Below, piece by piece: positions 3,703 through 51,633 of a stretch of 64,000 bases of DNA (the first letter of the stretch is position 1; each line of letters begins with the position of its first letter). The notes under the pieces are model-generated. The model ran no database searches, was not told where the DNA came from, and saw nothing but the letters and a program-made list of their open reading frames with translations. The translations under genes were made by a program, and so were the position numbers. The DNA lies in NCBI RefSeq assembly GCF_028623165.1, contig NZ_CP117768.1, positions 5,646,001-5,710,000 on the forward strand, given 5' to 3'. The stretch comes from Nostoc sp. UHCC 0926 (lineage in GTDB: Bacteria > Cyanobacteriota > Cyanobacteriia > Cyanobacteriales > Nostocaceae).

Positions 3703-3703
3703 A

Positions 3704-8639: not shown

Positions 8640-8708
8640 AATATTTATTGACGCTTACTCGCTCCCTATTTTAGGGGAAAATATATAGCTTAAAGATTGA
8701 GGAATTCT

Positions 8709-9389: not shown

Positions 9390-9514
9390 TCAAAATGAAC
9401 AGGTAGAGGCAAAACTTTCTCTAGGTTTTTTCCCATGCCCCATACCCAATTTGAGAGTTTCAACAATAATTTTGACAATTTAGGATATAATGCCACACAC
9501 TTGTTGATTGTTAG

Positions 9515-9571
9515 TTGTCATCTGCTAATGACTAGTAACTAATGACTAGTAACTAATGACCAATGACTGAT
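9515..9571. repeat. Short direct repeats (CTAATGACTAGTAA)
   Basis: The motif TAATGACTAGTAAC recurs about three times with drift (TAATGACCAATGACTGATGA at the end), directly before the scpB start. This is a simple-sequence stretch typical of Nostoc intergenic DNA. Confidence 0.6.
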
Positions 9572-9577
9572 GATTAA

Positions 9578-10456: not shown

Positions 10457-10804
10457 ATGGTGTTTAATCCTGACTTCTTGAATGACAACTCTGAGGAACA
10501 CCCTAATCAACTTCTTTCCGACCACTCTGAGGAATACCCCAATCAGTTACTCAAATATCTACAGCATCAGTCTCCTGATGTTTTAGCGAGGATTGCTCAG
10601 TCCGCCAGCCCTGAAATTAAACAAATCATCTCCCAAAATGTCCAAGGGCTAGTGGGAATGCTCCCTGTAGAAAATTTCAACGTGCAAATCACAACAGATC
10701 GGGAGAACTTAGCTGGGCTTTTAGCGTCGGCCATGATGACAGGGTATTTTCTGCGCCAGATGGAACAAAGAATGCAGTTAGAGCATTTGTCTAATGGTCA
10801 ATAA
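10457..10804 (+). CDS. DUF760 family protein
   Basis: This 115-residue protein matches the cyanobacterial and plastid DUF760 family. Family marks are NQLLKYLQHQSPDVLARIA, ASPEIKQIISQNVQGLVG (about 49-66), MLPVENFNVQITT (67-79) and the tail LASAMMTGYFLRQMEQRMQL. The molecular function is unknown; plant relatives are chloroplast proteins. The N-terminus carries two similar copies of (N/D)NSEEHPNQLL. It is preceded by repeats rather than by an operon partner. Confidence 0.85.
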   Translation: MVFNPDFLNDNSEEHPNQLLSDHSEEYPNQLLKYLQHQSPDVLARIAQSASPEIKQIISQNVQGLVGMLPVENFNVQITTDRENLAGLLASAMMTGYFLRQMEQRMQLEHLSNGQ

Positions 10805-36609: not shown

Positions 36610-37656
36610 CTAATTGTTCATCACTGCATCTAAAAGTACATTGGCATCAAAGCGGACGACATCGGTGCAAGGTAGCCCGGTTTCTGCTATTGTTTGAGCG
36701 ATGCTTTCCTCAGCCGCAGACTCATCTAGATGGGCTGTATTAAGCGCTATACCCACTACAGGAATACTTCCAAAAGCACCACCGGCACTAGCAACGGTTT
36801 CATAAAGTTGAATTACCTCTGGTAAAGGTGGAATTAGTACATGGGGATGATTACGTACATGAACTTGTCCCGCCCGATGTACTAAAACCAGTTGAGTTGG
36901 TTGCGAACCACGAATCAGGGGTAGAGTTGCTGTTGAACCAGGGTGTAGCAGTGAACCTTGTCCTTCAATGTGCAGGATGTCATAGTTTTTGCCATAGCGC
37001 ATGACTATCTGTTCCACAGCACCGGCGGCAAAGTCTACCCGCACGGCATCTAAAGCTACGCCGTCCCCTTCTAACATCACCCCAGTTTGACCGGTGGCGA
37101 GGAATTTAGAACTCCAGCCCCGTTGTTTTGATGCCCAATGTAACTCTAGGCTAGTTGACATTTTACCGATCGCCATGTCGGTTCCCACTGTCAACACCCG
37201 GCGACACGGGAGGGTGCGGGCTATTCCACTAGCAACACTTATATTAGGCGGCTCTTTTCGTACATCCCAAATTAGTTGCCCAGGTTTGAGTAGTGCATTT
37301 AACTCTGGTATATTTGCCATTGGTGTATGTAAACCATTCACCAGCGACATTCCAGCTTCTAAAGCGTCTTTGATTTCCAGCCAGTAATCATCTGGTACAG
37401 CACCACCTCCTGGAGCAATGCCTATTACCAAGACTTCTGGCTTGTACTCTAGGGCTGCGGCTACTGATGCCACAATTGGTACATCACGCTTGATACCTGT
37501 TAATTCTGGTAAAGATTTGCCAGCAGACTCGCGATCGATTACGGCTACAATTGGGGCTTCACTGTAACGTAAAATTGCTAGCCCTGTTTTGCCGTGATAC
37601 CCGCTAATTCCCTCATGCAGCAAGATAGCTACTCGTTGATTAAGTGGCAGACGCAC
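36610..37656 (-). CDS. DUF1611 P-loop protein
   Basis: The 348-residue protein matches DUF1611: a Rossmann-like N-terminal domain (VLVIGIAPGGGAVPDDYW, about 76-93) and a C-terminal domain with a P-loop (VGTDMAIGKMSTSLEL, 157-172) and HIEGQGSLLHPG. The start is a GTG at 37656 inside the 3' end of the epimerase gene (17-bp overlap), so the two are translationally coupled. DUF1611 genes commonly sit beside dipeptide epimerases, which suggests a joint peptide or N-acyl-amino-acid pathway; the reaction is not established. Confidence 0.88.
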   Translation of the reverse strand: MRLPLNQRVAILLHEGISGYHGKTGLAILRYSEAPIVAVIDRESAGKSLPELTGIKRDVPIVASVAAALEYKPEVLVIGIAPGGGAVPDDYWLEIKDALEAGMSLVNGLHTPMANIPELNALLKPGQLIWDVRKEPPNISVASGIARTLPCRRVLTVGTDMAIGKMSTSLELHWASKQRGWSSKFLATGQTGVMLEGDGVALDAVRVDFAAGAVEQIVMRYGKNYDILHIEGQGSLLHPGSTATLPLIRGSQPTQLVLVHRAGQVHVRNHPHVLIPPLPEVIQLYETVASAGGAFGSIPVVGIALNTAHLDESAAEESIAQTIAETGLPCTDVVRFDANVLLDAVMNN

Positions 37657-38692
37657 TGTGTTGTACCCCCAAACCTGGTAAATCGTTTGGCAAAACTTTC
37701 CCTTCTTTTAGCAATGCACCCGTAAAGGGGTCATCAATTAAGTTAAGGTGACTGTCTAAATCTAAATAATCAGCTAGTGGCGCTAGCTGTAATGCTGCTG
37801 TATTAGCTAGCGAACTGTCAGAGTAGCAACCAAACATTACTTGCAATCCATAGGCTCGCGCTGTATGTACCATTCGCATTGCCTCGGTTAGTCCCCCTGA
37901 TTTCATCAGTTTGATATTAATGCCATCCACGTAGTTTGCCAAATCAGGAATATCGGAGCTTGTGAAGCAACTTTCATCGACAAAGATGGGCATGGGAGAG
38001 TGTTCTTTGAGTTTTGCTAAACTTTTTTCCTGTCCGCGTAGCAATGGCTGTTCTACATACTTTATACCTAAATTAGCCAGCCAATTGCACATTGCGATCG
38101 CATCTTCTAAACTCCAACCTCCGTTGGCATCAACAAATAATTCTGGTAATGGTGCTTCTTCTCGCACTGCTAGTAGCATTTTTTTATCTGCATCTATGCC
38201 ATCTGGACTACCTAGCTTCACCTTGAAAAGGTGGACATCAGTAAATTGTAACCAGTCTCGCGCTCTAGCCCTGGCACCTTCAGGCGAATTAATCCCAATT
38301 GTGACTGAAGTTGGTACTATGGTGTTGCGATCGAGTCCCCAAATTTGCCACAAGGGTAATCCTACGCGCTTACCCAACCAGTCGTGCATTGCTATATCCA
38401 ACGCCGCTTTCACAGAAGAAGGAACCTGGTTTTGTGTTAAAACTTGCTCAATTTGCTGCCGCTGTAAGGGACTGAATGCTTGCAACAGAGGCACAACTTG
38501 CTGTAGGGCGTCTTTGATTGTATCAGTTGATTGCCGATGATTACCCACACCGAATGGCGATGCTTCCCCCCAGCCTTCGATCCCATCATGCGAGAGCCTC
38601 ACCCATACATTCGTTGTCTGTGCCGTTGTGCCTCGACTAATGGTCAACGGAAATCTCTTGTTTACTGTAAATAATTTTACATTTATTTGCAT
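37640..38692 (-). CDS. Dipeptide epimerase (enolase superfamily)
   Basis: The 350-residue protein has the muconate-lactonising subgroup residues: KVK (K157, K159), metal ligands D188 (LFVDANGG), E214 (YVEQPL) and D239 (PIFVDES), and K261 in GINIKLMKSGG, the opposing base. This fits L-Ala-D/L-Glu epimerase-type enzymes that invert the second residue of dipeptides, often from peptidoglycan turnover. Specificity cannot be read by eye. It is the first gene of a two-gene unit with DUF1611. Confidence 0.88.
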   Translation of the reverse strand: MQINVKLFTVNKRFPLTISRGTTAQTTNVWVRLSHDGIEGWGEASPFGVGNHRQSTDTIKDALQQVVPLLQAFSPLQRQQIEQVLTQNQVPSSVKAALDIAMHDWLGKRVGLPLWQIWGLDRNTIVPTSVTIGINSPEGARARARDWLQFTDVHLFKVKLGSPDGIDADKKMLLAVREEAPLPELFVDANGGWSLEDAIAMCNWLANLGIKYVEQPLLRGQEKSLAKLKEHSPMPIFVDESCFTSSDIPDLANYVDGINIKLMKSGGLTEAMRMVHTARAYGLQVMFGCYSDSSLANTAALQLAPLADYLDLDSHLNLIDDPFTGALLKEGKVLPNDLPGLGVQHSASAT

Positions 38693-38831
38693 ATTTATTT
38701 TGCATATTATGTTATGCCAAAAGCCAGTGTAAGTTCAAAGTTTAGATTATCGGATGCATCTGTTATACTTTTTTACATTCATTGCTTGATTCCTCAACTT
38801 TTTATACATAATTTGATTTGTTAGTTAATTT

Positions 38832-39383
38832 ATGACCGACTTAAAAAAATGGAAGACTTTAAAATCAAAAATGGTTTTAGATCATTACTGGTGTAAGGTA
38901 AGGCAAGATGAAATAGAATTGCCCAATGGAAAAATTATTGATGATTATTTTGTCAGTATTAAACCAGACGTTGCAATGGTTTTACCTATAACTAGTAGTA
39001 GAGAAATTATTTTTGTCCGGCAATACAGACACGCCATAGGTGAATTTTTCTTAGAACTGCCAGCAGGGAATTTCGACCCCACAAAAGAGAGTGCAGAAGT
39101 AGCAGCAATTAGAGAATTTACAGAAGAAACTGGTTATATTCCCCAAGAATTTAGAAAAATTGGAACTTTATACGATAAGCCGAGTAAGGATACCAATCAA
39201 ATACATTTATTTTTAGCAGAGAATATGAGTAAAGTTGGAGAGCAACAACTAGATATTACAGAAGAGATTGAAGTTGTATTAATTCCTGTAGAATCAGTTT
39301 TAGATAAAATTATTCAGGGAGAAATTTCTGTAGCGGGAACTGTAGCGGCTCTCTTATTAGGTTTACAATATCTCACTTATTAA
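38832..39383 (+). CDS. NUDIX hydrolase (ADP-ribose pyrophosphatase-like)
   Basis: The Nudix box reads GNFDPTKESAEVAAIREFTE then ETGYI (about residues 78-101), with one extra residue between G and E as is usual for the ADP-sugar pyrophosphatase subgroup, preceded by LELPA. Upstream VSIKPDVAMVLPI and FVRQYRHAIGEF are also typical of that subgroup. The likely reaction is hydrolysis of ADP-ribose or a related nucleoside diphosphate sugar. 183 residues is normal. It converges with the interrupted jetD gene. Confidence 0.87.
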   Translation: MTDLKKWKTLKSKMVLDHYWCKVRQDEIELPNGKIIDDYFVSIKPDVAMVLPITSSREIIFVRQYRHAIGEFFLELPAGNFDPTKESAEVAAIREFTEETGYIPQEFRKIGTLYDKPSKDTNQIHLFLAENMSKVGEQQLDITEEIEVVLIPVESVLDKIIQGEISVAGTVAALLLGLQYLTY

Positions 39384-39385
39384 TA

Positions 39386-39546
39386 TCAATGTAGCTTTTT
39401 GGTATTTTGCTCCCTGTCAGGTATACTAACGCACGAACTCTGTATGTATTGATAGGCATAATCTTGACTAATGCGTTCTTGCTCCAAGCGTTTATTGTGA
39501 AGAGAGAGATACAAATATAAAGCTTGTTCTTCAGGAGTCAGATAAA
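39386..39546 (-). pseudogene. jetD: jetD 3' part, severed by the TnpB element
   Basis: The minus strand encodes LYLTPEEQALYLYLSLHNKR then LEQERISQDYAYQYIQS, ending at a TGA (39386-39388). This is the expected C-terminal end of DUF2220/JetD proteins (LTPEEQ...LEQERI pattern). It has no start of its own. If 39547-40949 is removed, the codons join without a frame change (…AEN-L-L-YLTPEEQ…), giving a JetD of about 398 residues. It therefore belongs to the gene whose 5' part lies at 40950-41985. Confidence 0.9.
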
Positions 39547-39690
39547 TTGACACTCCCCGCGCTGAAGCGACGGGGATTCTTGAATCTAAGACATAACTTG
39601 CTCTTGCAGGTTTGCACCAACAAGAGTAGAGGTTTCATCTCCGCAAGTGTTGCCTACGTCTAGCGCAGAGGTTCCGATATGCCCTACCGT
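39547..39690 (-). ncRNA. Predicted omega RNA (reRNA) of the first TnpB element
   Basis: In IS200/IS605 elements the right end, overlapping the 3' end of tnpB, is transcribed into the guide scaffold. The expected hairpin (39555-39575) lies next to the element edge, and the following 16-20 nt (39546 downward) would act as guide. The 5' limit cannot be seen and is set arbitrarily. The guide would match jetD sequence. Confidence 0.45.
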
Positions 39691-40776
39691 ACCCAATCCT
39701 CGACTAAGGATATTTCTAGCTGCGTTTTCGTCTCTATCCATTACGCATCCACACTGACAAACGTGGGTTCGAGTAGATAGAGTTTTCTTAACAGTTTCAC
39801 CACAGCTAGAGCATTCTTGGCTACTATATTGCGGATTAACCGCAACCGTGACACGCTTGAATACTTTACCAAAGTACTCAATCCAGACACGAAACTGATA
39901 CCAAGATGCATCATTTATAGACTTGGCTAAACAGTGATTTTTCACCATATTCTTAATCCTCAAATCTTCATAGGCTATCAAGTCGTTAGACTGAACTACG
40001 CACCGTGCTAATTTCACAGCATGGTCTTTACGTTGCCTACTTATTTTGAGGTGGCGTTTACCTAAAATTTGTCTAGCCTTACTTCTATTCTTTGAACCTT
40101 TTATCTTTCTTGAAACTCGACGTTGTGAACGCTTGAGAACTTTTTCACCAATACGCAGGAACTTTGGGTTTTCAACCATCGTTCCATCTGAATCGGTGTA
40201 GTATTCCTTAAGTCCAACGTCTAAACCAACCGTATTACCAGTCGGTTCTATATTCTCGGAACGTTCTACATCAATACAAAATTGAACATACACACCATCC
40301 GCACGTTTCACCAACCTCACCCGTTTAATCTGGTTAATTTGGTAGAAGTGCAAATCACGAGTACCTTTGAGTTTTAACTTTCCAATACCTTTTTTGTCAG
40401 TGAAAGTTATTGATTTACGATTATCTGCAAGCTTCCATCCAGTCGATTTGTACTCAACAGATCGACAATCTTTCTGAAATCGAGGATACCCCTTTAAACC
40501 CGGAATACCCTTCTTGCAGTTGTCATAAAACCGAGAGATAGAAGACCATGCTCTTTCAGCAGAAGCCTGTCTAGCCATTGAATTAAGTTCATTAGCAAAG
40601 GGAAAATTAGCCGCAAGTACAGCACAATATTTTTGCAAATCATTTTTACCTGTGCCTTTAACGTCCATCCATAGCCGAATACAGCTATTACGAATAAACT
40701 TTGCAGTCCGAATTGCATCATTTATTTTGCATAATTGCGCTGACTTCCCATAAGCTTTAAACTTAAAAACAAGCAT
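39586..40776 (-). CDS. tnpB: TnpB RNA-guided endonuclease (element 1)
   Basis: The 396-residue protein has the complete RuvC triad D186 (GLDVGLKEY), E270 (AYEDLRIKNM) and D349 (DRDENAARN). A zinc ribbon lies between the last two (C322, C325, C340, C342 or C344; SSCGE...CQCGC). The ATG at 40776 (MLVFKFKAYG) follows GGGAGG; the longer frame from 40791 is not needed. TnpB cleaves DNA next to a short element-specific motif using the omega RNA and helps the element persist. No frameshift is present, so the nuclease may be active. It is co-oriented with the jet operon. Confidence 0.93.
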   Translation of the reverse strand: MLVFKFKAYGKSAQLCKINDAIRTAKFIRNSCIRLWMDVKGTGKNDLQKYCAVLAANFPFANELNSMARQASAERAWSSISRFYDNCKKGIPGLKGYPRFQKDCRSVEYKSTGWKLADNRKSITFTDKKGIGKLKLKGTRDLHFYQINQIKRVRLVKRADGVYVQFCIDVERSENIEPTGNTVGLDVGLKEYYTDSDGTMVENPKFLRIGEKVLKRSQRRVSRKIKGSKNRSKARQILGKRHLKISRQRKDHAVKLARCVVQSNDLIAYEDLRIKNMVKNHCLAKSINDASWYQFRVWIEYFGKVFKRVTVAVNPQYSSQECSSCGETVKKTLSTRTHVCQCGCVMDRDENAARNILSRGLGTVGHIGTSALDVGNTCGDETSTLVGANLQEQVMS

Positions 40777-40949
40777 CTTTTTACCTCCCACTTTATACTA
40801 CCACACTTGGTATAAGATATTAGGAAGGTTGAAAAACTTTATACAATCTTGACGGCTGAATAAATTCAGCTATTCGCTTATATCCCCTATCTATTGCACA
40901 GAAGGCGGTACTACGTACCTGTTCTTCGGGGGCTTTACGCTTCACTATC

Positions 40950-41985
40950 GTAAATTTTCGGCAGTTGATTCTGAAACAGTAACAGCAAATTCTTTAAAAT
41001 TTTCAAGTGTTTTTGCATCCATCATTATGGAAATAGTTTTAGGGAAATAAGAGCGGAGTTGAGAGAGGATCTTAAATCCATCAGTATCCAAATCACCCCA
41101 GTAGAAGATAGGACAATCTGCCAGCCAGTTTACAGATTTCAATATTTGAATAGCGTATCCGCTACCAAATAGGGCAAAGCTGTTTTCTAGAGCAGGTAGG
41201 GTTAGAAAATTCATCAAGTTTTCAGCAATAAAAAAGCGATGCGCCTTGAAATTAAGTTGTCTAAACTCGGAAATAGGGGTACTTATGTCAGAAAGCGGAA
41301 AGTCATACTTAGCTTTTAATGCTGAATCTAAAATTCTTAATCGGATGAGAGGCTCACGATACCTGAGAGAAAATCGCTTTTCAAAAGTATATTCTTTCTC
41401 CCTTTCTACTGACGAAAGTAGTTCAGTAGGTAGGATGGCTTCTAAAAGATTGCCGAGGATACCCTTATTCTGTTCGATAAATTTAGTGTGAATCCGAATA
41501 GGTAATTCTCGAATATAAAGATGAGGTTTTGGATTACATTGAAAGTATCGACAAACCTTTAGTAAATCATTCCAGTGATCGCTATATTCAATCACTTTTA
41601 TAGGGTTTTGGTTAAGCCAGCAATTAAGTTCAGGAACTTCTGAGCGAATTAATTCTATATCTGTCTTGAATTTTGAGAATTCTTTCTCCTTTTTTAGCAG
41701 TTTTAAGTAGTCCTGTTCTGTGTCTATACTAATGCGTTGAGGCAAAGACTGCTGTCCAAGCTTATGAAGCTTACGAGTCTCCAGTTCAAGTGTGTAGCCA
41801 TAGCCTAAATCCTGTTTAGACTTGCTGATTAACTGAGTAACACCTTCTCGTAAAGCAAGATAATCTTTAGGAAGAGAACCGATTGAAAACTCGATTGGAA
41901 AAAATTTATCTCCTGTAATTACTGAACTAAGAAACGATGGATAAAGACGTTCAGCTTTTTGTAGAATTTGAACAGGACTAATCAT
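40950..41985 (-). pseudogene. jetD: jetD 5' part (DUF3322/DUF2220), interrupted
   Basis: JetD is the DNA-cutting subunit of Wadjet. The fragment covers residues 1-345: an N-terminal DUF3322-like domain and the Toprim-like core of DUF2220 (FYWGDLDTDGFKILSQLR with the DxDxxG acidic cluster, about residues 303-320). Reading then enters the TnpB element and stops at 40945 (…SESTAENLR). The lost tail is at 39386-39546. The Toprim centre survives, so partial activity is conceivable, but loss of the C-terminal helices probably destabilises the protein. Its ATG overlaps the jetC stop by 8 bases. Confidence 0.9.
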
Positions 41986-44900
41986 GACTTTGACTTAAGG
42001 TAAGCTGGCGCTTTTGTCGATATTTATCAATTGAGATGGAAGTAATACTGGAGAAGTTACCTTCAAGTGTATTAGAGACGAAATGAAGACTAGAAATGTA
42101 TGACTCAATTACATTAATTTTATCCTTGGGAGTGACGACCAATAGTTGAAGGTTCAGGTTTCTAAATAGTTCCATTGCATAACGAGCATTATTATCATCT
42201 GATTTACTAAATGCTTCGTCAATGACGACAAACCGGAAGGATTTCTTTTTTGCAGTGTCTTGATTTAAACCAAACTGATAAGCGATCGCTGATGCCAATA
42301 TAGTGTATGCTAATTTAACTTTCTGCCCACCAGATTTTCCTGATGAGTCAGTGTGATGTTCTTTTTCAATATTGTCTGAACGATAGCGTTCAATCACTGA
42401 AAAATCTAGCCAATTTCGGACATCTGTTACTAATAATGTCCAACGCTGCTCCTGTGATTTGAACCTTTCAATGAGGCGAGTTTTAATATTGTGAAAACGT
42501 TGCTCGTTGTCTTCAGCACTTTGGTAAGCAACATCACCCAAGCAAATTTTTAAATCTTCCTTAAAATTTTTAATTTCCTGATTATGGCTTGGTTCATAGC
42601 ACAACTCAATGTAAGTTGAATCCGTGTAATCCACTTGTCGTAAAGATTTATTTAACTCATCAATATTTTCCTGTATTTCTTCTTCTTGTTTCTCTAATTG
42701 CCCCTTAAATCCTACAATTGCTTCGATAACTTTGCCAGTCATCAAACGCTTAAACCGTTCTTCGTGACGAGGTAAATCATCATGCTCAATTTGAGTCTTT
42801 AGCTGAAGATATTCGTCTAAAAAATCAAGCGTTGTTGCCAGTTCTACTGTTATTTCAGGAAAAGCATTCTTAAAGTTGTGCATTCGTATAGTCAAGGCGC
42901 TACGGGAGTCATCTTGTTGTCGCTCTCTTTGGCGAAGTTCTTGCTCAAGGTATTTTTGCAAGTCTGACTCATCTTGAGCGATCGCTTCTAGTGTCATCTT
43001 GTATTGCCTGAGTTTTACTGCCATGCGCGTCACAAATTTCTCAATGGCTGAAGCAGCAACAGATTGAAGTTTAATTTCACAATCTTTTTGCTCAATTTGG
43101 GCTTGGCGTTGCCGATTTTCAAGAGTCCGAATTTCTCCAATCAAAGCTGTGCGTCGTTGATCGGCTTGGGCTATTTCTTCCTTGGTTGACTCAAGTTGCG
43201 CTTCTAACTGCTTGAGATGGTCAGAACTGGCTTCTAGCTGCTGCTTTTGTTTCTGAAGGTTCTGGCAATCAAGTTCTGCCGATCGCCAATCAATTTCGCT
43301 GGAGTCAGTAAATTTCATCAAATCTTGCAGCCAGGATGTTTGCTCAAGCCGCTGATTATGCTGACGCTTCAATGATTGAACTTGTTTGTCAATCTCAGCA
43401 AGTTGTTGATTAACCTGACTCAATTCAGCCTCTAACGCATTGATTTTACTGGCATTATTCCAACCCAGAATATACTGGCCGCGATCGCTAATCCGAAATC
43501 GATCGTCTTTCTCGTGGCGTTCTTTGCTATGTTTAATCAGCCCAGTGCGAGTAATGGCGCGGATTTCATGCTGGAACTGTTCTTCATCGCAACAAACATA
43601 ATTGAACTGGCGCACTAACTGATCACGTAACCAATGGGAGAATCTGCCATTATCTTGCTTGATTTCTAACTTGTGGGGAACCTGATGGGGTTCGAGGGCG
43701 CGTTGTGTTGGATTGGGAGTTGAAGCAGTAACGCGATAGTAAACTAAATATCCCTTTAAATTGGTCTGATCTACATAGGCATTAACTGTTTGAAAGTATG
43801 CTTCAGGAACAAGAATAGATAAACCAAACTTTCGCACTAGTCGCTCGATCGCACCTTCCCATTCCTGTGCTTCTTTGCGGATTTGCAAGAGTTCTCCGAC
43901 AAATGGCAGATCGGTATCATTTAAGTTTAAATCACGGACAAGGCGATCGCGGATATCTAGACTCCTTTTAGGAATCTGGCTCTTGCGCCTGCGAAGCGAT
44001 TCTAGCTCGTCGTTCAGTTTAGCCTGCTGTTTTTGCAAATCACTACGAAGCGTAATTTGTTGATCTCGTTGTGCTTCTAATGTTTGTAACGCTGTCTCAA
44101 TTTCGCGCTTAAGTTCCTCTCCTTGGGTTCTATTAGCGTAGAAGGTGGTGCTATCAGTGTACTGAGTCAGGTGCAAAATATGAGCCAGGCGATCGTAATT
44201 CTGTGCCTGAGTGCGTTTGCTGCTCACCTCCTTCTGGCGTTGCTCGATTTCCCGCGTGAGTTCCTGTAAGCGTTGCCCAGCGCTATCCTCCTTAATGGCG
44301 AAATCTAACTGTTTGTCTTGTTCGCGCAGTTCTGACAGACGGCGATCGCTTTCGGCTCGTTGATGTCGCAACTGAGTTAAATCTTGTTCAATTTTTTGCA
44401 GTTCTTGAGTTAACAAATCAAGTTTCTTACTAGCAAAAAAGGCAGGGGCAACGTCTTTAGATTCCTGATACTTTGCAACTTCATTTTTAAGTTTTGTATA
44501 TTTTTCTGCTTCTGCTGTCAGTGGCAAAAGTGCCTCTAACTGTTTTCGTGCATTCTGAATTGCGGTATGGGAAATAGTTAAGTTTTCATAATTTTCTTGT
44601 AACTCACGGATTTTGGTTTGCACATCTGCTTTGTCCAACATGTGATTACGAACAAAATCATTCAATCCACCAATCTCTTTGATACTGACTGTTTGATTGA
44701 ACAAATCTAATGCTTTTTCGGATTCTAGACCAAAGCGTTTGCGAAACTGCTGACTATAGTCCACAAATTTATCAAACGTTTCTGCGCCGAGCGCTTTGAG
44801 TTGTTTCTTTAAGTCTGGAATGTGAGTAGATTTAGTAAAATGGGAGGCGATTGTTAACTCGGCATCCGCAACAACAAAGAACTTTTGCACCGAGCCATCT

Positions 44901-45337
44901 TTCATCCATAGCACTTGTGCCAGCGTCACATCTTGTTTGCTCACGCGATCGCTAAAATAGGCAAGCAACACCGAAAGCTTTCCTTTGTCTCGTAGTAATT
45001 TGGGTTTTGAGCCATAGGATTCTTCAGCACGAGTACGACCATAAGCTCCCCGAACATAGCTTTTTTCATCCCGCTCTTTTTTGCCAGTCATGCTGGAAGC
45101 TTGGTTATAATTCCGGCGTTGATTTGCAACAAGTAATGTCAGCAATCCATCCACCAGCGTGGATTTTCCTGAGCCGTTTGCTCCAGTCAGCAAGGCAATA
45201 TTTCCCTGCAAATCCAGCACCCAAGGGTGTTGGTCAAAGGTTCCCCAATTCAGCACTTCAAACCGTTGGAGGCAAAAGCCTGCCAGCGCTTTGTCATTGA
45301 AATCACCCATTTGTTCAATCGGCAGGAGGATTTGCAT
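41978..45337 (-). CDS. jetC: Wadjet SMC-like ATPase JetC
   Basis: JetC is the MukB/SbcC-like motor that extrudes DNA loops in Wadjet. The 1119 residues contain Walker A (TGANGSGKST, 51-60), two long coiled-coil arms (about 280-480 and 640-860) around a hinge with ISDRGQYILGW, the ABC signature KSGGQKVKLAY (about 996) and Walker B FVVIDEAFSKSD (about 1034). All ATPase elements look intact. It overlaps jetB by 23 bp and jetD by 8 bp, so the operon is translationally coupled. A later start (MGDFNDKAL, 45310) is possible. Confidence 0.93.
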   Translation of the reverse strand: MQILLPIEQMGDFNDKALAGFCLQRFEVLNWGTFDQHPWVLDLQGNIALLTGANGSGKSTLVDGLLTLLVANQRRNYNQASSMTGKKERDEKSYVRGAYGRTRAEESYGSKPKLLRDKGKLSVLLAYFSDRVSKQDVTLAQVLWMKDGSVQKFFVVADAELTIASHFTKSTHIPDLKKQLKALGAETFDKFVDYSQQFRKRFGLESEKALDLFNQTVSIKEIGGLNDFVRNHMLDKADVQTKIRELQENYENLTISHTAIQNARKQLEALLPLTAEAEKYTKLKNEVAKYQESKDVAPAFFASKKLDLLTQELQKIEQDLTQLRHQRAESDRRLSELREQDKQLDFAIKEDSAGQRLQELTREIEQRQKEVSSKRTQAQNYDRLAHILHLTQYTDSTTFYANRTQGEELKREIETALQTLEAQRDQQITLRSDLQKQQAKLNDELESLRRRKSQIPKRSLDIRDRLVRDLNLNDTDLPFVGELLQIRKEAQEWEGAIERLVRKFGLSILVPEAYFQTVNAYVDQTNLKGYLVYYRVTASTPNPTQRALEPHQVPHKLEIKQDNGRFSHWLRDQLVRQFNYVCCDEEQFQHEIRAITRTGLIKHSKERHEKDDRFRISDRGQYILGWNNASKINALEAELSQVNQQLAEIDKQVQSLKRQHNQRLEQTSWLQDLMKFTDSSEIDWRSAELDCQNLQKQKQQLEASSDHLKQLEAQLESTKEEIAQADQRRTALIGEIRTLENRQRQAQIEQKDCEIKLQSVAASAIEKFVTRMAVKLRQYKMTLEAIAQDESDLQKYLEQELRQRERQQDDSRSALTIRMHNFKNAFPEITVELATTLDFLDEYLQLKTQIEHDDLPRHEERFKRLMTGKVIEAIVGFKGQLEKQEEEIQENIDELNKSLRQVDYTDSTYIELCYEPSHNQEIKNFKEDLKICLGDVAYQSAEDNEQRFHNIKTRLIERFKSQEQRWTLLVTDVRNWLDFSVIERYRSDNIEKEHHTDSSGKSGGQKVKLAYTILASAIAYQFGLNQDTAKKKSFRFVVIDEAFSKSDDNNARYAMELFRNLNLQLLVVTPKDKINVIESYISSLHFVSNTLEGNFSSITSISIDKYRQKRQLTLSQSHD

Positions 45338-45893
45338 AAGCCGCTAACTTTTGTTTCAGGAGTTCGAGGGTATCAGCATCAACTTTGGCTTTGAGGATGG
45401 GACGCACTTCGTAATTTTCATCTTGTCCAGACAGGCGTTTTAGGAATCCTAATTCCATCGCCTGCTTCACCAGTCCATCCACCTCGCGCCGAAATCTTTC
45501 CTCATTATTCCCTTCAGGTAGGTAGGGTTTTAACAAATCTCGGATTTTTTCTATACTAAGAACCAATCGCCCTGTAGCGTCGCTGGCATCGAACTGTCGC
45601 AGTTGCTCACGCAGTAATACGCATAAAACGGTGACATTAAAGCTCAACTTATGGCGGGCGGTTAGCCGGGGAAGGGCTTCAGTCTGGTCTTCCGGGTCGG
45701 GGTCGGGTTGTTCCAGGTAGGCAAATCCTTCAGTTTCGTAATTTCGGACTTGCAGACCAATTTTGCCAAAATATTCTTTAATTGGAGTTAAATGATTTTG
45801 CAATCCATCCCAATGTGAATCATCACTGTAAATAGCTCCCCGCAAAAGTTTGAGAATGACGTGTGCATAGGGTAGAGGCGGTTGAGGTTGCAT
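45315..45893 (-). CDS. jetB: Wadjet subunit JetB (DUF4194, MukE-like)
   Basis: The 192-residue protein matches DUF4194: an N-terminal helix (YAHVILKLLRGAIYSDD), DGLQNHLTPIKEYFGKIGL, a winged-helix body (LSFNVTVLCVLLREQLRQFD) and the C-terminal FLKRLSGQDENYEVRPILKA. JetB acts as the kite-type regulator linking the kleisin JetA to the ATPase JetC. It sits 11 bp after jetA and overlaps jetC. No damage is visible. Confidence 0.9.
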   Translation of the reverse strand: MQPQPPLPYAHVILKLLRGAIYSDDSHWDGLQNHLTPIKEYFGKIGLQVRNYETEGFAYLEQPDPDPEDQTEALPRLTARHKLSFNVTVLCVLLREQLRQFDASDATGRLVLSIEKIRDLLKPYLPEGNNEERFRREVDGLVKQAMELGFLKRLSGQDENYEVRPILKAKVDADTLELLKQKLAAYANPPAD

Positions 45894-45904
45894 TGTTTGG
45901 GCAG

Positions 45905-47374
45905 TTAGCGGTGAAAGATAACTTGTGGTAAGGTCAGCTGGAACTGCTTTTCTGGCTCCAGGCTTGTAATTACGATCGCTTCAATTGTACTGGTATTAAT
46001 TGAATGGCGATCGGATTGAGTGGCGATCGCCAGATACGCAACAATCTCTGGTAATCCCTGCGTGACTGGATAGAGTTGGAGCAGTTCTGTCAGCAATACT
46101 TCTGTTCGCTGTTCGAGTGTTCGTTCAATGCGTTGTACCAACGTCTCCTCATCCACATAAAACTGCTGATAAAGTGCAGTAATTTCCTCATCCAGCATGA
46201 CTTCTGGTAAGTCACTGAAATCCATTGAGAATGTCGGCATTTCTGACTCCTCCAGTGGATGCAAAGGACGTGCAATCACCAGATTTACGGTTGGTTCGCC
46301 TTCTAATACCCAAAAGTCTGGCTCTGGTGGCGCAAGAGTTGCAACTTGTAAGGCAAGGCGTTGCACTTCGGTAATCAGTTCAGCCACACGTCGATTTTCC
46401 ATGAGATTGCGTTCATCCAACATCTGACGTAGTTTTTCTGCCAGTCGGTGATTGGATTGCACAATATAATCTCCGGCATCAATCAAAATGCGCTCAATCC
46501 GACGCAGTAGCCCATACTCCTGAGTTAATGGCTGCAATTCTTCTAGGGTATAAATCGTTTGAATCAGAGATTTTAGCTCCTGTCGGTTACTGGTTGACAT
46601 AAGGAAATTCCAGAATGCATAGAAACTGCGCCCTTGGTCAGAATCTTTCAATTCCTGATCTGCATCCAGCACTCGACTGATTACTGTACCTTTGCGAATA
46701 TCTTTCTGAAGTTGAGCTTCTTGTACGGTACGAGTTAAACTGCGAAAGTTTTGCTCAACTGCTCTAAAATCTGCGCTTAACTGGGTGGTGATTTGGTTTG
46801 CCAGAAGAAAACGTTCTTGCAGTTGTGTCGGGTTGTAGGGATCAACCACTCCTGTCTGACGAATCTGGTCAATCTCTTGCTGAATGCGATCGCGATCCTT
46901 TTCCAGTTGAGTAATTCGCGTCTCAATGTCCGTTGTACTGCGATCGCGAATTTCCTTTAATAGTGAGAAAATCTGCAAGAAGCGAGATTCAGTTCCTACA
47001 AACTCTTCTCGCCGCTTCAGGTCTTCTAACCACGCGATCGCTTTCTCAGCAGCCGGAGTTAGTGTAAATACTGGATCGTCACTGCTGTTAAACGTTTTTC
47101 TCAAAAGCTGTTCATCACACCATTCCTTGAGATATTGTTTTGGCGATTTCCCTTCGGGAACGTTGCACGAACGAGGATAATCTGGATAAAGGTCTTGCAG
47201 AAACTCCAGATATTGACCCAGTTCGTCTTCTAACTCTAATTGAGTGATAGAAATGCGCTGAGTTACCTTAAACTGTTTATAAAAAAAACTCAGAATTAGA
47301 GCGGCGTTATGGCTTCGTAAAACCTTCAGGGTGGCAGAGTTTTCTAATTCATGCTTAATTTGTTCATATTCCAT
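45905..47374 (-). CDS. jetA: Wadjet kleisin subunit JetA (DUF3375)
   Basis: The 489-residue protein matches DUF3375, the MukF-like kleisin of Wadjet. It opens with an N-terminal winged helix (LKVLRSHNAALILSFFYKQF) and WCDEQLLRKTFNSSDDPVFTLT, followed by a long coiled-coil middle (TQLEKDRDRIQQEIDQIRQT). A C-terminal domain ends in an EAIVITSLEPEKQFQLTLPQV strand set. It is the first gene of jetABCD, and the 113-bp gap upstream should contain the promoter. It appears intact. Confidence 0.9.
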   Translation of the reverse strand: MEYEQIKHELENSATLKVLRSHNAALILSFFYKQFKVTQRISITQLELEDELGQYLEFLQDLYPDYPRSCNVPEGKSPKQYLKEWCDEQLLRKTFNSSDDPVFTLTPAAEKAIAWLEDLKRREEFVGTESRFLQIFSLLKEIRDRSTTDIETRITQLEKDRDRIQQEIDQIRQTGVVDPYNPTQLQERFLLANQITTQLSADFRAVEQNFRSLTRTVQEAQLQKDIRKGTVISRVLDADQELKDSDQGRSFYAFWNFLMSTSNRQELKSLIQTIYTLEELQPLTQEYGLLRRIERILIDAGDYIVQSNHRLAEKLRQMLDERNLMENRRVAELITEVQRLALQVATLAPPEPDFWVLEGEPTVNLVIARPLHPLEESEMPTFSMDFSDLPEVMLDEEITALYQQFYVDEETLVQRIERTLEQRTEVLLTELLQLYPVTQGLPEIVAYLAIATQSDRHSINTSTIEAIVITSLEPEKQFQLTLPQVIFHR

Positions 47375-47487
47375 AGCAGTTCTTCATCATGAAGTGAAGC
47401 AGACTTAATAAAAGATAATGCAAACAGCTATAGTTGTCATTTATGAACACAGCTAGCTTTGAAGTTTTATTTTTAGTTTTTAGTTTT

Positions 47488-48411
47488 TTATCTTGCCCAT
47501 TGCTGCAAAATATAACCATAAAAAGCCTCTTTATCGACTTTATCCATCGCATAAATTTTCCGACCACCAGTAACTACTTTAGTACGCCCCTGACTAAGAC
47601 CAGTGGTGATAATTTCTGTTTCCCATTCGCGCAATTGATAGAATTCTGGGTGTCCCAGATAAGCTGTTGCCAGCACATCCCAGAAATAATAATCTTGGGG
47701 GATAACTAGTGCATAACATTGTCCAGCTAAATCAGAGATGGGATAATGGCGTTGTCGCCCCATTTTTTGCACTAATTCTGATGTGAATGGGACATTATTA
47801 GTTAAATCTAAAGGACACATAATAATTTCAATTTGCGTTTGCCATACCCGCGCTGCTGAAATTGCATCCCAATAAACATTCCATTCGGCAGAACCATCTT
47901 GTCCTGCTTCTAAACTTTTTTCCACATTACCACCGACATTCAACGCACCCCCCATCCATACAATTTTGTAAATCTTTGCTTCAATGTCTGGTGCTTTGTC
48001 CAAGGCTACTGCAACTGTGGTCAACGGCCCAGTTATCATCAACGTTACGCGGCTTGATGCGTTACGTAACACCTTGATCATAAAATCTTGACCTGTTTCG
48101 GCAACCAGAGACGTAGTGATGGTTTCGCTTTGATTGAGAATGGGGAGATGGTCAACAATAAACGAATCACGGCGATAAAGAGTAGGAAATGGATTGATAC
48201 CGCGCACAGTACTTTCTGCAACCGAGATATGAGAAAATCCCATCAAATCGAGAATTTTACGTGTGGCGCTAACAGCTGGTTGGACATAACAATCTGCTGG
48301 AGTGACGACAACACCAAGGAGTTCAATATGATCCATTGTCAACAGCAGCATAGTTGCTAGATAATCATCTACACCGCCATCGTGATCCATTAATACTAGT
48401 TGTTTTGACAT
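47488..48411 (-). CDS. Inosine-uridine-type nucleoside hydrolase
   Basis: The 307-residue product opens with MDHDGGVDDYLATMLLL (about 8-24), the calcium-binding DxDxxxDD of nucleoside N-ribohydrolases. It has MITGPLTTVAVAL, KIVWMGGALNVGGN and the His/Asp-containing YYFWDVLATAYL near the C-terminus, where the second calcium Asp is expected. It splits ribonucleosides to base and ribose. Start ATG 48411 (MSKQLVLM) is chosen; the longer frame is antisense to the neighbour. It is head-to-head with a cytosine deaminase, 15 bases apart. Confidence 0.88.
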   Translation of the reverse strand: MSKQLVLMDHDGGVDDYLATMLLLTMDHIELLGVVVTPADCYVQPAVSATRKILDLMGFSHISVAESTVRGINPFPTLYRRDSFIVDHLPILNQSETITTSLVAETGQDFMIKVLRNASSRVTLMITGPLTTVAVALDKAPDIEAKIYKIVWMGGALNVGGNVEKSLEAGQDGSAEWNVYWDAISAARVWQTQIEIIMCPLDLTNNVPFTSELVQKMGRQRHYPISDLAGQCYALVIPQDYYFWDVLATAYLGHPEFYQLREWETEIITTGLSQGRTKVVTGGRKIYAMDKVDKEAFYGYILQQWAR

Positions 48412-48426
48412 AAAAGGAGAATTAAT

Positions 48427-48858
48427 ATGGATAAGTTTATGGAAGCTGCAATTCAAGAAGCAAAACAAGGCAGACAAGAAGGTGGAATTCCCATTGGTTC
48501 GGTTCTCGTCAAGGATGGCAAAATTCTCGGCAGAGGACACAATAAACGCGTGCAAGACGCCGATCCTGTCACTCACGCCGAAATCGATTGTCTCCGTAAT
48601 GCTGGGAGAGTTGGCAGCTACAGAGGTACTACACTCTATTCAACTTTAATGCCGTGTTATCTGTGCGCTGGGGCAGTGGTACAATTTGGCATTAAAAAAG
48701 TCATCGCTGGAGAATCCAGCACTTTTCCTGGTGCCAAAGAATTTATGGTATCTCACGGTGTGGAAGTAATTGATCTTAATCTTGACGAATGCGAACAAAT
48801 GATGAGTGAGTTTATTCAAACTAACCCGGAACTTTGGAATGAAGATATCGGTAATTAG
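48427..48858 (+). CDS. Cytosine deaminase, yeast-type (Fcy1-like)
   Basis: The zinc site is H50-A-E52 (THAEID) and C77/C80 (MPCYLCAGAV). The full pattern (EGGIPIGSVLVKDGKILGRG, GRVGSYRGTTLYSTLMPC and the tail LWNEDIG) closely resembles Saccharomyces cytosine deaminase as I remember it, rather than the large bacterial amidohydrolase CodA. The expected reaction is cytosine to uracil. Length 143 is normal. AAGGAG lies 7 bases before the ATG. Paired with a nucleoside hydrolase it completes a cytidine to uracil salvage route. Confidence 0.88.
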   Translation: MDKFMEAAIQEAKQGRQEGGIPIGSVLVKDGKILGRGHNKRVQDADPVTHAEIDCLRNAGRVGSYRGTTLYSTLMPCYLCAGAVVQFGIKKVIAGESSTFPGAKEFMVSHGVEVIDLNLDECEQMMSEFIQTNPELWNEDIGN

Positions 48859-48906
48859 AGACGCGATTAATCGCGTCTGTTAGGAGAGACGCGATTAATC
48901 GCGTCT
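48859..48906. repeat. Tandem copies of the AGACGCGATTAATCGCGTCT palindrome
   Basis: Two perfect 20-bp palindromes (48859-48878 and 48887-48906) are separated by GTTAGGAG. The first starts one base after the cytosine deaminase stop. The same 20-mer occurs at 2556-2575. They may double as terminator hairpins. Confidence 0.88.
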
Positions 48907-49095
48907 GTACAGGAGTTAGGAGTAGCCCTGCCAAGATGACTTTTGATCGGAGAATTATGGCAGGAGCGATCGCTATCTCAAAAGGAACACACAAGAATAG
49001 GATAAATACTGGGTGCAATCTTTGAACGATTTGTCAAACAAAGTCCAGTCAGCGTGATGGTACGGGGGCTGATAGAAAGAGGCTACTCATCACTT

Positions 49096-50214
49096 CTAAC
49101 CCAGCAAAAGTGTGCTGTTATTATCAATCAGGGGAATTCCACTAGTAGCCATACCTGGGTTGGGCTGTGATGCATTATAGGTCTGAATATAACGCCGCAC
49201 TTCTAGCGGAAAATCAGGGTAATCTAATACTGCATCCCCATCAGCAATAGTTGACCAGAAGTCTCGCAAACTAGGAGCTAATTCTTTTGCCTGTGATAAT
49301 GGTAAGTTTAATGGAGAGTGAGTTAGTAGCTTGACTAGGAAGGGGAAAGAGCGATCGCCCATCCACTGCCGCGATGACTGTTGCAAGTCGGGGAACTCAG
49401 GCACTGACTCTACCCGATGGGATGAAATTTGCAACGATTCTTTACCTTGGTGATCCCGATGAAACTCTAGCACCCGGTAAGGGTGAGGATAGCTAACTAA
49501 AGAGCCAGTGGTAATATCATATACTCCATCTGAGTAAGCAATATCCTGAACGTGCAAATGCCCGGTAAATACTAGCTTGACTCCGTAGCGTCTGAGTAAC
49601 TGCAACAGTTCTGCTGAATTCGCTAACATATAGCGATTTGCCAGTGGGTGGCTCGATTGATTGGGCAAATGCTCGACCACATTATGATGCACCATCACCA
49701 GAACTAATTCATCACCAGACGCCGCTAGCACCTCTTCTAACCACCGTAGCTGTTTGGTATCCAAACACCCCACCTGCTCTCCCTGGTCATTAAAGGAGTT
49801 AGAATTCAGTCCAATCAGCTTAACTCCAGGCAGCAACTGACGAATGTAGTAAATCTGCTGTGGATCGTCATAGCCAAACTTCGTATAATAGTAGGGAAAA
49901 TCTGCAAAAGCGATTGATTGCTGATCAGCCAACAGCACAGGAACGTCATGATTACCAGGAACAACATAGACGGGAAAAGGTAGTTGGGCTAACCGTTGTT
50001 GCAACCAAGCGTGGTTTTCTGGTTCGCCGTGCTGGGTTAAATCTCCTGGCAACAAGAGAAAATCTAAATCGAGTTGTGTTAAATGTTCTAGTACACTTTC
50101 AAACGCCGAGATACTGACTTCTACCAGATGAAATCTGCTGGGATGATCCCAGATTGTGTGGGGAAGTGCCAGGTGTAAGTCGCTGACTACTGCAAAGCGA
50201 AAATTGAGAGCCAT
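49096..50214 (-). CDS. Calcineurin-like metallophosphoesterase
   Basis: The 372-residue protein has the five metallophosphoesterase blocks: VVSDLHL (about 9-15), LLPGDLTQHGEP (about 55-66), VPGNHDVP (about 87-94), VMVHHNV (about 175) and FTGHLHVQD (about 217). The order and DLHL...GHLH form match the class III cyclic-nucleotide phosphodiesterase (CpdA-like) group. It could hydrolyse cAMP or another phosphodiester. A 140-residue C-terminal extension has no clear domain. No operon partner. Confidence 0.87.
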   Translation of the reverse strand: MALNFRFAVVSDLHLALPHTIWDHPSRFHLVEVSISAFESVLEHLTQLDLDFLLLPGDLTQHGEPENHAWLQQRLAQLPFPVYVVPGNHDVPVLLADQQSIAFADFPYYYTKFGYDDPQQIYYIRQLLPGVKLIGLNSNSFNDQGEQVGCLDTKQLRWLEEVLAASGDELVLVMVHHNVVEHLPNQSSHPLANRYMLANSAELLQLLRRYGVKLVFTGHLHVQDIAYSDGVYDITTGSLVSYPHPYRVLEFHRDHQGKESLQISSHRVESVPEFPDLQQSSRQWMGDRSFPFLVKLLTHSPLNLPLSQAKELAPSLRDFWSTIADGDAVLDYPDFPLEVRRYIQTYNASQPNPGMATSGIPLIDNNSTLLLG

Positions 50215-50410: not shown

Positions 50411-50560
50411 GTGAACTACCCAACACCCATCTGAATAGAGATTGGGTGTGGGCTTCCGGTTTCATTGACAATAGCCTTTCTACCTTACGGTTTATTGGTG
50501 TTACGTCGCCTCGACTCGGCAATAACGGGGTTCCCTCCGTCCATAGATAATATCCGAAGT
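50411..50560 (-). ncRNA. Predicted omega RNA of the second TnpB element
   Basis: By analogy with characterised TnpB systems, the right end with hairpin 50423-50449 plus the 3' end of tnpB should form the guide scaffold. The guide would be the flanking host sequence just below 50411 read on the minus strand. The 5' limit is arbitrary. Confidence 0.4.
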
Positions 50561-51633
50561 CCTTCTGTTCTTATGTTCTGGCTGGCGTTCGCATCACGAT
50601 CATGATGAATATTGCAAGACGGGCAATCCCACTCTCTGATATCTAGGGGCAATTCATCAAGAACATGACCACAGGAGGAACAGGTTTTAGAACTGGGGAA
50701 AAATCTTCCTATTTCTACAAGTTGACCCTCTTTGTCCTTCAACTTGTAATCAAGGAAATTAATAAACATCCCCCAACCCACATCGGATATACTTTTTGAT
50801 AGCTTCCGGTTCCGCACCATTCCCTTGAAGTTGAGATTTTCAACCACAATAACTTGGCTTTCATTAACCAATTTTCTGCTGAGTTTATGCAAAAAATCTT
50901 GGCGGGAATTTGATACTCGTTCGTGAACCTTCGCTACTATTTTTTTGTGTTTGTGTCTCGACTTACTCCCTTTTACTTTTCGGGCAAACTTTTTTTGCTT
51001 ACGAGCTAGATTTCTCTGGTGACGTTTCAAGTGTCTAGGGTTGAAATACTTGGTAACTTCCTCTCCATCATGGACAATCGCAAAGTCTTTTAACCCTAAG
51101 TCAATGCCGAGTATTTTGTCTCCACCCAACTTATTTTCAGCGTATTCTACTTCGACCAGAATTGAGGCAAAGTATTTGTCAGTAGCGGTTTTGCTAATGG
51201 TAACAGTTTTGATTATTCCCTTAACTAGTCTGTGAAATACTGCCTTCACTTCACCGATTTTAGGAATCTTTAACTTTTTATCTACAACAGTGACGCTTTG
51301 TGGATACTGAATAGACTGCTTATCAAATTTTGATTTAAACTTGGGAAACTTAGCCCGTCCATCAAAAAAGTTTTTGTAAGCTTTGTCTAGGTTAATAGCT
51401 ACGCACTGCAAAACTGACGAATAGCAATCTTGCTTTAACCAAGAATACTCTACTTTTAATTGAGGTAGTAAACCCTTGTATACACTCATTTTTAATGACT
51501 TTCCAGTTTCTTCATAGTGTTGAATGCAAGCATTGAGTGCATAGTTCCAATACCACCTTGCACAACCAAACGATTTGGCTAAACTTTCTCTTTGTTCGGT
51601 TGTTGGGTATAGCCTCACCTTAATTGCTTTCAA
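50485..51633 (-). CDS. tnpB: TnpB RNA-guided endonuclease (element 2)
   Basis: The 382-residue protein has the RuvC triad D178 (GIDLGLKDFA), E265 (VVENLNFKGM) and D347 (HHDRDANAS), and zinc ribbon cysteines C318, C321, C337, C340. The N-terminus (MKAIKVRLYPTTEQRESLAK, with CARWYWNYALN) is the classical OrfB helix-turn-helix. It is only distantly similar to element 1's TnpB, so the two represent separate lineages. GGAGGTGATG lies upstream of the ATG. No damage is seen. Confidence 0.93.
   Translation of the reverse strand: MKAIKVRLYPTTEQRESLAKSFGCARWYWNYALNACIQHYEETGKSLKMSVYKGLLPQLKVEYSWLKQDCYSSVLQCVAINLDKAYKNFFDGRAKFPKFKSKFDKQSIQYPQSVTVVDKKLKIPKIGEVKAVFHRLVKGIIKTVTISKTATDKYFASILVEVEYAENKLGGDKILGIDLGLKDFAIVHDGEEVTKYFNPRHLKRHQRNLARKQKKFARKVKGSKSRHKHKKIVAKVHERVSNSRQDFLHKLSRKLVNESQVIVVENLNFKGMVRNRKLSKSISDVGWGMFINFLDYKLKDKEGQLVEIGRFFPSSKTCSSCGHVLDELPLDIREWDCPSCNIHHDRDANASQNIRTEGLRILSMDGGNPVIAESRRRNTNKP

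What the first reader, a model, noticed from the sequence alone, without database searches (positions are those of the whole stretch)
39386..47374. Wadjet operon whose jetD is split by a TnpB-only transposon
Seen: jetA, jetB and jetC are intact and overlapping. jetD stops 12 bases into foreign sequence, and its missing C-terminal part (LTPEEQ...LEQERI) lies on the far side of a tnpB element. Deleting 39547-40949 restores a single frame with no lost residue. Known: JetD is the nuclease subunit of Wadjet, which cuts circular plasmid DNA. Inference: anti-plasmid defence is off or altered in this strain but could be restored by precise excision, a phase-switch-like state. This would be the most notable system in the window.
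Basis: partly seen in the sequence, partly recalled or inferred. Interest (0 to 1): 0.85.

Follow-up and report, generated by a model that had tools for sequence, protein, structure and literature searches.

The report
Anti-plasmid gene split by TnpB transposon
In this cyanobacterium a small mobile element has landed inside the DNA-cutting gene of an anti-plasmid defence system and has very probably switched it off; related Nostoc strains have lost the same system in other ways, so this looks like ongoing loss rather than a reversible switch.

Summary
A type I Wadjet operon (jetABCD, minus strand) has jetD split by a 1,403-bp tnpB-only IS200/IS605-type element at 39547-40949. The element lies directly 3' of TTAC and ends in TCAA; no target duplication is visible. 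Ten base-identical copies sit in this genome, all after TTAC. The two JetD pieces meet at model position 347 with nothing lost. Four same-genus genomes show the uninterrupted junction at the orthologous locus. The detached 52-aa tail carries RLEQE, with two glutamates proposed as JetD nucleophiles, so the system is very probably dead.

The phase-switch inference is not supported. The element has no tnpA. Its TnpB keeps three catalytic residues, and its predicted guide next to TTAC is the healed jetD site, so TnpB should cut excised alleles. All five same-genus genomes with a detected jetD trace are broken, with three other kinds of lesion. Of eight JetD-bearing loci in the family, one looks intact.

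This is ordinary transposon inactivation, with two points of interest: Wadjet decay across a plasmid-rich genus, and an RNA-guided nuclease predicted to be programmed against its host's own defence gene. Nothing was tested in the laboratory.

The parts
45905..47374 (-). jetA (489 aa, DUF3375), intact
45315..45893 (-). jetB (192 aa, DUF4194/MksE), intact
41978..45337 (-). jetC (1119 aa, SMC-like ATPase), intact; the only full-length jetC found in a search of 53 genomes of the genus
40945..41985 (-). jetD, N-terminal piece (346 aa; native sequence to 40950, end of the last codon and the stop made by element bases 40949-40945); keeps E255 and D298, aligned with the metal-binding residues of MksG
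40950..40953 (-). TTAC target tetranucleotide at the left flank (predicted TAM); present at 10 of 10 identical copies
39547..40949 (-). 1,403-bp tnpB-only IS200/IS605-type element, one of ten identical copies in the genome
39586..40791 (-). tnpB (401 aa, OrfB_IS605 + Cas12f1-like_TNB); D191, E275, D354 and zinc-ribbon cysteines present; same direction as jetABCD
40880..40949 (-). left end of the element; hairpin only weakly better than shuffles (z -1.36); part of it resembles the left ends of three tnpA-bearing elements in this genome
39547..39585 (-). right end with strong hairpin (z -3.49) and terminal TCAA; predicted 3' scaffold of the guide RNA
39527..39546 (-). predicted 20-nt TnpB guide, which is jetD sequence; 0-2 mismatches to the empty site in four same-genus genomes, each preceded by TTAC
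39386..39546 (-). jetD, detached C-terminal piece (52 aa) with LT..E and RLEQE.I invariant in ten rows
38832..39383 (+). NUDIX-hydrolase-like gene, neighbour used as a synteny marker (name by recall)
47488..48576 (-). nucleoside-hydrolase-like gene, neighbour used as a synteny marker (name by recall)

Best explanation
A type I Wadjet anti-plasmid operon has been inactivated by recent insertion of a non-autonomous, tnpB-only IS200/IS605-type element into jetD. SHOWN: the break, its zero-base loss against relatives, the ten identical copies after TTAC, the empty site in four relatives, and the separation of the RLEQE tail from the rest of JetD. INFERRED: the element came in 3' of TTAC by a Y1 transposase acting in trans. 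INFERRED: the truncated JetD cannot cut DNA, so JetABC has no working nuclease and small circular plasmids are tolerated. INFERRED: TnpB, which points the same way as the jet operon, makes a guide RNA from the downstream jetD sequence and cuts any jetD allele that lacks the element, so the insertion is locked in rather than switchable. Across the genus the same locus is being lost by several different lesions.
For: Families and split. Element anatomy, ten identical copies after TTAC, no flank repeat longer than 2 bases. Empty sites: base-exact in L058, and TTAC plus the 20-nt guide stretch with 0-2 mismatches in 4 of 4 same-genus loci. No full-length copy of the element in 8 of 8 same-genus genomes tested, best 85% over 606 of 1,403 bases, which fits a recent arrival or burst. 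The N-piece keeps the residues aligned with MksG E236 and D279 and loses those aligned with E349/E351 (alignment, counted by hand; PMC10123090 passages). TnpB aligns to TnpB of entry 8h1j over residues 9-370 with D191, E275, D354. Right-end hairpin z -3.49. Locus decay in the genus. The genome holds 35.9- and 37.0-kb contigs whose first 20 kb partly match plasmids of Nostoc and relatives (at most 52% and 35% of the query in one place), a size that Wadjet restricts (PMC10586767 passages; PMC12287153 section 17).
Against: No activity was measured for JetD, the truncated JetD or TnpB. For MksG the authors favour Y258 as the main nucleophile; the two glutamates are an alternative proposed for JetD (PMC10123090 passages). 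The guide RNA was predicted, not seen; the 190-nt 3' region folds only slightly better than shuffles (z -1.42, 20 of 200 as good) and Rfam gave no hit. Plasmid content is weak support: Gloeothece verrucosa PCC 7822 (G776), whose jetABCD looks intact, holds circular plasmids of 43.6 and 47.6 kb. A tnpA able to move this TTAC element was not identified.
Confidence: 0.85

Rival explanations
1. Reversible switch: a Y1 transposase in trans excises the element precisely often enough that some cells carry a whole jetD, so the population hedges between plasmid defence and plasmid tolerance.
For: The junction is base-exact and frame-preserving. The genome has 17 Y1_Tnp matches, three of them beside tnpB in elements whose left and right ends resemble this one. 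jetA to jetC remain open.
Against: TnpB should cut the empty allele (PMC8612924 passages), and its residues are present. The three tnpA-bearing elements appear to use TTAT rather than TTAC. 5 of 5 same-genus loci are broken, four of them with large deletions. The detached C-piece diverges from S13 with dN/dS about 0.83 over 46 codons against 0.35 for the N-piece (about 22 changes, and S13's operon is broken too).
Confidence: 0.07
2. The truncated 346-aa JetD still works, so Wadjet is active or altered rather than off.
For: Residues aligned with the metal-binding E236 and D279 of MksG and the whole N-terminal domain are kept; for MksG the favoured nucleophile is a tyrosine, not the lost glutamates. 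jetC 623-1119 and the jetD N-part show moderate constraint against S13 (dN/dS 0.28 and 0.35).
Against: All nine relatives keep the tail, in which R19 L20 E21 Q22 E23 I25 are invariant. The two glutamates are proposed nucleophiles for JetD (PMC10123090 passages). About 40 of 382 JetD profile positions are missing.
Confidence: 0.06
3. The insertion is an assembly artefact caused by a ten-copy repeat.
For: Ten identical copies are a known trap for assemblers. No reads were available.
Against: Both flanks at this place are jetD and meet with no base missing; a chimera would need two unrelated flanks. The ten copies have different flanks and all keep TTAC. The genome is in 7 contigs, 100% complete.
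Confidence: 0.02

Closest known systems
Wadjet type I (JetABCD / MksBEFG)
   Same: All four families in order, JetD with DUF3322 and JetD_C domains; the JetD model matches solved MksG 8b7f, JetD 8q72 and 7til.
   Different: jetD is split, so as it stands this is a broken member.
IS200/IS605 family, tnpB-only (IS1341-like) elements; TnpB of ISDra2 as the solved relative
   Same: TnpB family, right-end hairpin, TTAC on the left, TCAA at the right end, no visible target duplication, predicted guide in the right flank.
   Different: No tnpA inside; target TTAC rather than the TTGAT of ISDra2 (PMC8612924 passages). The label IS1341-like, and that 8h1j is the ISDra2 protein, are recalled.
TnpB as a gene drive for insertion sequences in multicopy plasmids (Mears et al., PMC11870625, abstract and outline seen)
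   Same: TnpB guided to the element-free copy of its own insertion site.
   Different: Here the site is a chromosomal defence gene, not a plasmid; activity is inferred only.
jetABCD loss in Clostridium cellulovorans (PMC12287153, abstract and section 17 seen)
   Same: Natural loss of Wadjet; deletion raised plasmid uptake about five orders of magnitude.
   Different: Spontaneous and engineered deletions there; transposon insertion and decay in related genomes here.

Membership tests
Wadjet type I | Adjacent jetA (DUF3375), jetB (DUF4194), jetC (SMC-like), jetD (DUF3322 and JetD_C) | tested here: met
Wadjet type I | Complete JetD C-terminal domain including the EQE motif | tested here: not met
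   The motif lies on the far side of the element, outside the JetD reading frame
Wadjet type I | Restriction of small circular plasmids | not testable with these tools
   needs an assay; resident 36- and 37-kb plasmid-like contigs are only consistent with loss
IS200/IS605 tnpB-only element | tnpB with RuvC D, E, D and zinc ribbon, no tnpA inside | tested here: met
IS200/IS605 tnpB-only element | Fixed short target on the left, fixed right end, no duplication | tested here: met
   10 of 10 copies after TTAC, ending TCAA; longest end-to-start flank repeat 0-2 bases
IS200/IS605 tnpB-only element | Subterminal hairpins at both ends | tested here: inconclusive
   right hairpin z -3.49; left z -1.36, 20 of 200 shuffles as good
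IS200/IS605 tnpB-only element | Right end and flank transcribed as a guide RNA that directs TnpB to the empty site | not testable with these tools
   sequence match to the empty site shown; RNA and cutting not shown; the 190-nt RNA fold is not significant
Phase-variable on/off switch | Both states observed, and a reversing enzyme for this element | tested here: inconclusive
   Element-free junctions occur in four relatives, but in operons broken otherwise; no dedicated transposase identified

The most novel reading that the evidence does not exclude
The TnpB in jetD acts as a gene drive that keeps plasmid immunity off: the jet operon's own transcript supplies TnpB and a jetD-derived guide, TnpB cuts every element-free jetD copy in a multi-copy cyanobacterial chromosome and any intact allele arriving from a neighbour, and repair copies the element in. 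The immune gene becomes its own kill target, to the benefit of plasmids and of elements that ride on them. TnpB-type ORFs at the breakpoints of two other decayed cyanobacterial Wadjet loci (G216, G268) would then be traces of the same process.
Probability: 0.2. Interest if true: 0.7.

Novelty: new member of a known kind. Interest (0 to 1): 0.42.

Why it matters
It gives a clean natural example, with sequenced empty-site relatives, of an anti-plasmid system disarmed by an element whose nuclease is predicted to be programmed against the healed gene. In the genus, every genome in which a jetD trace was detected has a broken locus, which makes two questions testable: what Wadjet costs its host, and whether TnpB drive speeds its loss.

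Tried and rejected
Intron or IStron reading (element spliced from RNA): Rfam found nothing at E up to 1 in 37000-50000; rejected. A second jetD elsewhere in the genome: one JetD_C match only; rejected. Cyanobacterial Wadjet loci broken more often than others: 6 of 18 scorable named cyanobacterial loci against 7 of 54 others, Fisher p 0.076; with L106 also counted as broken p is 0.094, and with the three frameshift-only cyanobacterial loci (L060, L063, L065, possibly sequencing errors) dropped p is 0.68; not claimed. These loci are the best 80 of 195 found. Left out before the count: L069 among 19 cyanobacterial loci, and L079, L092, L096, L106, L110, L111, L123 among 61 others, because I judged the operon cut off at a locus or contig end; L106 does hold 1.4 kb upstream without a jetC hit. 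TnpB elements specially targeting Wadjet: TnpB-type ORFs adjoin breakpoints in G216 and G268, but such genes are very common (43 matches in this genome), so no enrichment is claimed. Element aimed at defence genes: Pfam was run on flanking ORFs of six of the nine other copies (aspartoacylase-like, two histidine kinases, two AAA proteins, one with an MrfA zinc-binding domain); the remaining three were judged between genes by eye. Only the jetD copy is in a defence gene that I recognise. Plasmid content as proof of Wadjet loss: undone by Gloeothece verrucosa PCC 7822. Wadjet recently brought by a plasmid: the best of 11 PLSDB records with a match is 34.6% identical over 90% of the query. Structure prediction was not run because the tool returns no coordinates with which to measure active-site distances.
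Full report
WHAT IS THERE. The window lies on contig C3 of an 8.31-Mb, 7-contig genome. The tool places it in one genus with G712, whose 80,664-base contig equals in length the contig named Nostoc sp. S13; I therefore speak of Nostoc. On the minus strand, jetA 47374-45905, jetB 45893-45315, jetC 45337-41978 and jetD 41985-40945 follow one another. Pfam and PADLOC name them as type I Wadjet. JetA to JetC match their best PADLOC profiles nearly end to end; JetD stops at profile position 340 of 382.

THE SPLIT. A JetD model from ten rows (the window's N-piece plus nine relatives) finds two pieces in this genome: positions 1-347 at C3:5686945-5687985, counting one TAG, and 347-382 at C3:5685437-5685544. 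The second lies in window 39386-39546, 52 aa, and aligns to nine relatives at 34-63% identity with L2, T3, E6, R19, L20, E21, Q22, E23 and I25 invariant. Between them is a 1,403-bp element, 39547-40949. The JetD ORF ends on a TAG made by the element's first five bases.

THE ELEMENT. A protein search gives 43 tnpB-type matches in this genome, ten at 100% over the full 401 aa. The ten full elements are identical base for base; each follows TTAC and ends TCAA, and no flank repeat longer than 2 bases is seen. Copies lie on C3 (seven), C5 (one) and C7 (two). The right end folds as a hairpin better than 199 of 200 shuffles; the left end is weak (z -1.36). There is no tnpA inside. Seventeen Y1_Tnp matches lie elsewhere; three sit beside tnpB in elements whose ends resemble this one (left 83-85% over 41 bases, right 73-79% over 92-96 bases), but those appear to follow TTAT. 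In eight same-genus genomes tested, none holds a full-length copy; the best match is 85% over 606 of 1,403 bases. In the order, 224 of 291 genomes hold some related sequence, at most 88% in the rows listed apart from the window's own genome (two candidates scored per genome, list cut). So relatives of the element are common and this copy set looks like a recent burst.

EMPTY SITES. Nostoc sp. S13 (L058) aligns to window 40950 and to 39546 at neighbouring bases 7036 and 7037. Four same-genus loci (S13, G710, G679, G680) all read TTTAC followed by the 20 bases that flank the element here, with 1, 0, 2 and 1 mismatches. TTAC at this place is kept in 6 of 7 loci compared (L058-L063 yes, L064 TTGC).

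WHY JETD IS PROBABLY DEAD. In MksG, the JetD of Corynebacterium glutamicum, E236 and D279 bind metal, and alanine mutation of either drastically impaired cutting; E349 and E351 match two conserved glutamates proposed as alternative nucleophiles for JetD. For MksG itself the authors favour Y258, with the glutamates as a possible source of residual activity (PMC10123090, passages). By counting along the alignment (construct offset 106), E236 and D279 correspond to E255 and D298 of the N-piece, and E349/E351 to the two glutamates of RLEQE in the detached piece. The break therefore separates the metal site from the proposed nucleophiles and removes about 40 profile positions. Activity itself was not tested.

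WHY IT IS PROBABLY NOT A SWITCH. TnpB of ISDra2 cuts DNA next to its TAM at sites matching the 3' end of an RNA from the element's right end, and is proposed to restore the element after excision (PMC8612924, passages). The TnpB here aligns to a solved TnpB (8h1j, E 5.6e-33; that this is the ISDra2 protein is recalled) and has D191, E275, D354. Its predicted guide is jetD itself, and TTAC plus guide is exactly the healed site. A preprint reports TnpB spreading its element through multicopy plasmids this way (PMC11870625, abstract and outline). That the same happens in a multi-copy cyanobacterial chromosome is inference; multi-copy chromosomes in such cyanobacteria are recalled knowledge. The guide RNA was not seen, and its 190-nt fold is not significant (z -1.42).

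THE LOCUS ACROSS NOSTOC. The JetD model hits 8 of 217 genomes of the family (up to 8 candidates scored per genome, so weak remnants may be missed). Five are of the same genus (53 genomes). In all five the jet remains lie between the same neighbours (deaminase, nucleoside hydrolase, NUDIX; for the window genome). All five are broken: the window genome by TnpB in jetD; S13 by a 921-bp insert with HTH_Tnp_4 and terminal repeats, in place of everything from jetA residue 141 to jetC residue 622; G710 by an in-frame fusion of jetA 1-133 to jetD 320-377; G679 and G680 with only jetD 309-377 detected, and in G680 an SDR-like and a MarR-like gene (names recalled) in front of it. These are four kinds of lesion; some could be nested, so at least one loss independent of the TnpB event is certain and three are likely. 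jetC is found in 2 of 53 genus genomes, complete only here. Downstream of the nucleoside hydrolase, 30 genus loci (29 besides the window's) were scanned within at most 1.5 kb; clear jet sequence appeared only in those of S13 and G710 (L251, L263), with one 26-base low-score match in L249. The G679 and G680 remnants lie beyond that reach. So 1 of 8 looks intact. In the order, 13 of 19 JetD-bearing genomes have full-length JetD, this one is split and five are partial. Elsewhere, Leptolyngbya PCC 6406 has an IS66 element in jetC and a further insertion in jetD; G216 and G268 have TnpB-type ORFs at the breakpoints.

LIMITS. The broader contrast of cyanobacteria with other phyla is not significant (6 of 18 against 7 of 54, p 0.076, and weaker under other scorings). 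dN/dS against S13 is 0.11 for the nucleoside hydrolase, 0.31 for the deaminase, 0.28 for jetC 623-1119, 0.35 for the jetD N-piece, 0.69 for jetA 1-140 and 0.83 for the C-piece; the last rests on about 22 changes. Plasmid content fits loss (36- and 37-kb plasmid-like contigs), but a genome with intact jetABCD also keeps circular plasmids of 44 and 48 kb.

LITERATURE. No paper in the held library contains both Nostoc and Wadjet. Three contain Wadjet and TnpB; I saw only their listing, and nothing in it points to a TnpB-split jetD. Four contain Wadjet, insertion sequence and disrupted; the one I opened (PMC6579920, one passage) reports Wadjet genes and no insertion in them. Most papers of subscription journals are missing from the library, so a report elsewhere is possible.

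VERDICT. The cause is ordinary transposon inactivation. The switch reading is unlikely; the reading of a self-targeting lock is open and testable.

Noticed in passing
G776 = Gloeothece verrucosa PCC 7822 (L245 jetABCD; L290 = NC_014535.1): A genome with apparently intact type I Wadjet has as its smallest replicon a 13.8-kb plasmid recorded as linear with a telomere resolvase; its 474-kb plasmid is also linear, with a protelomerase. Linear form would let a small plasmid escape Wadjet. Its 43.6- and 47.6-kb plasmids are recorded as circular and are not explained this way.
   Followed up: partly
L208 (G268) 2718-4372 and L207 (G216) 7267-10536: Decayed Wadjet loci in two other cyanobacteria with TnpB-type ORFs at the breakpoints: jetD up to about residue 223 runs in frame into a tnpB ORF, and jetA residue 334 adjoins a tnpB-type element that is followed by jetD from 172.
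   Followed up: partly
L107 (Leptolyngbya sp. PCC 6406) 1029-9610: jetC carries an IS66 element with an 8-bp direct repeat and jetD carries a 2.4-kb insertion with transposase-like ORFs, so one operon was hit twice.
   Followed up: partly
L069 (Spirulina sp. SIO3F2) 2776-6001: A 3.2-kb block with three ORFs of 195 aa or more, one looking like a DUF1016-type nuclease (name recalled), sits between jetC and an intact jetD.
   Followed up: no
L003 2862-3569 (C3, near 2,796 kb): Another copy of the same element abuts an ORF with an MrfA zinc-binding domain; it resembles a DISARM-type protein by recall only.
   Followed up: no
L009 2748-4202 and L010 865-4202: Other copies interrupt a protein with an AAA_35 domain on the 292-kb contig C5 and what looks like an AAA ATPase with a winged-helix domain on C7.
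   Followed up: no
window 50545-51303: A second tnpB-type ORF, 36% identical to the first, lies about 10 kb away in the same window (C3:5696545-5697303).
   Followed up: no
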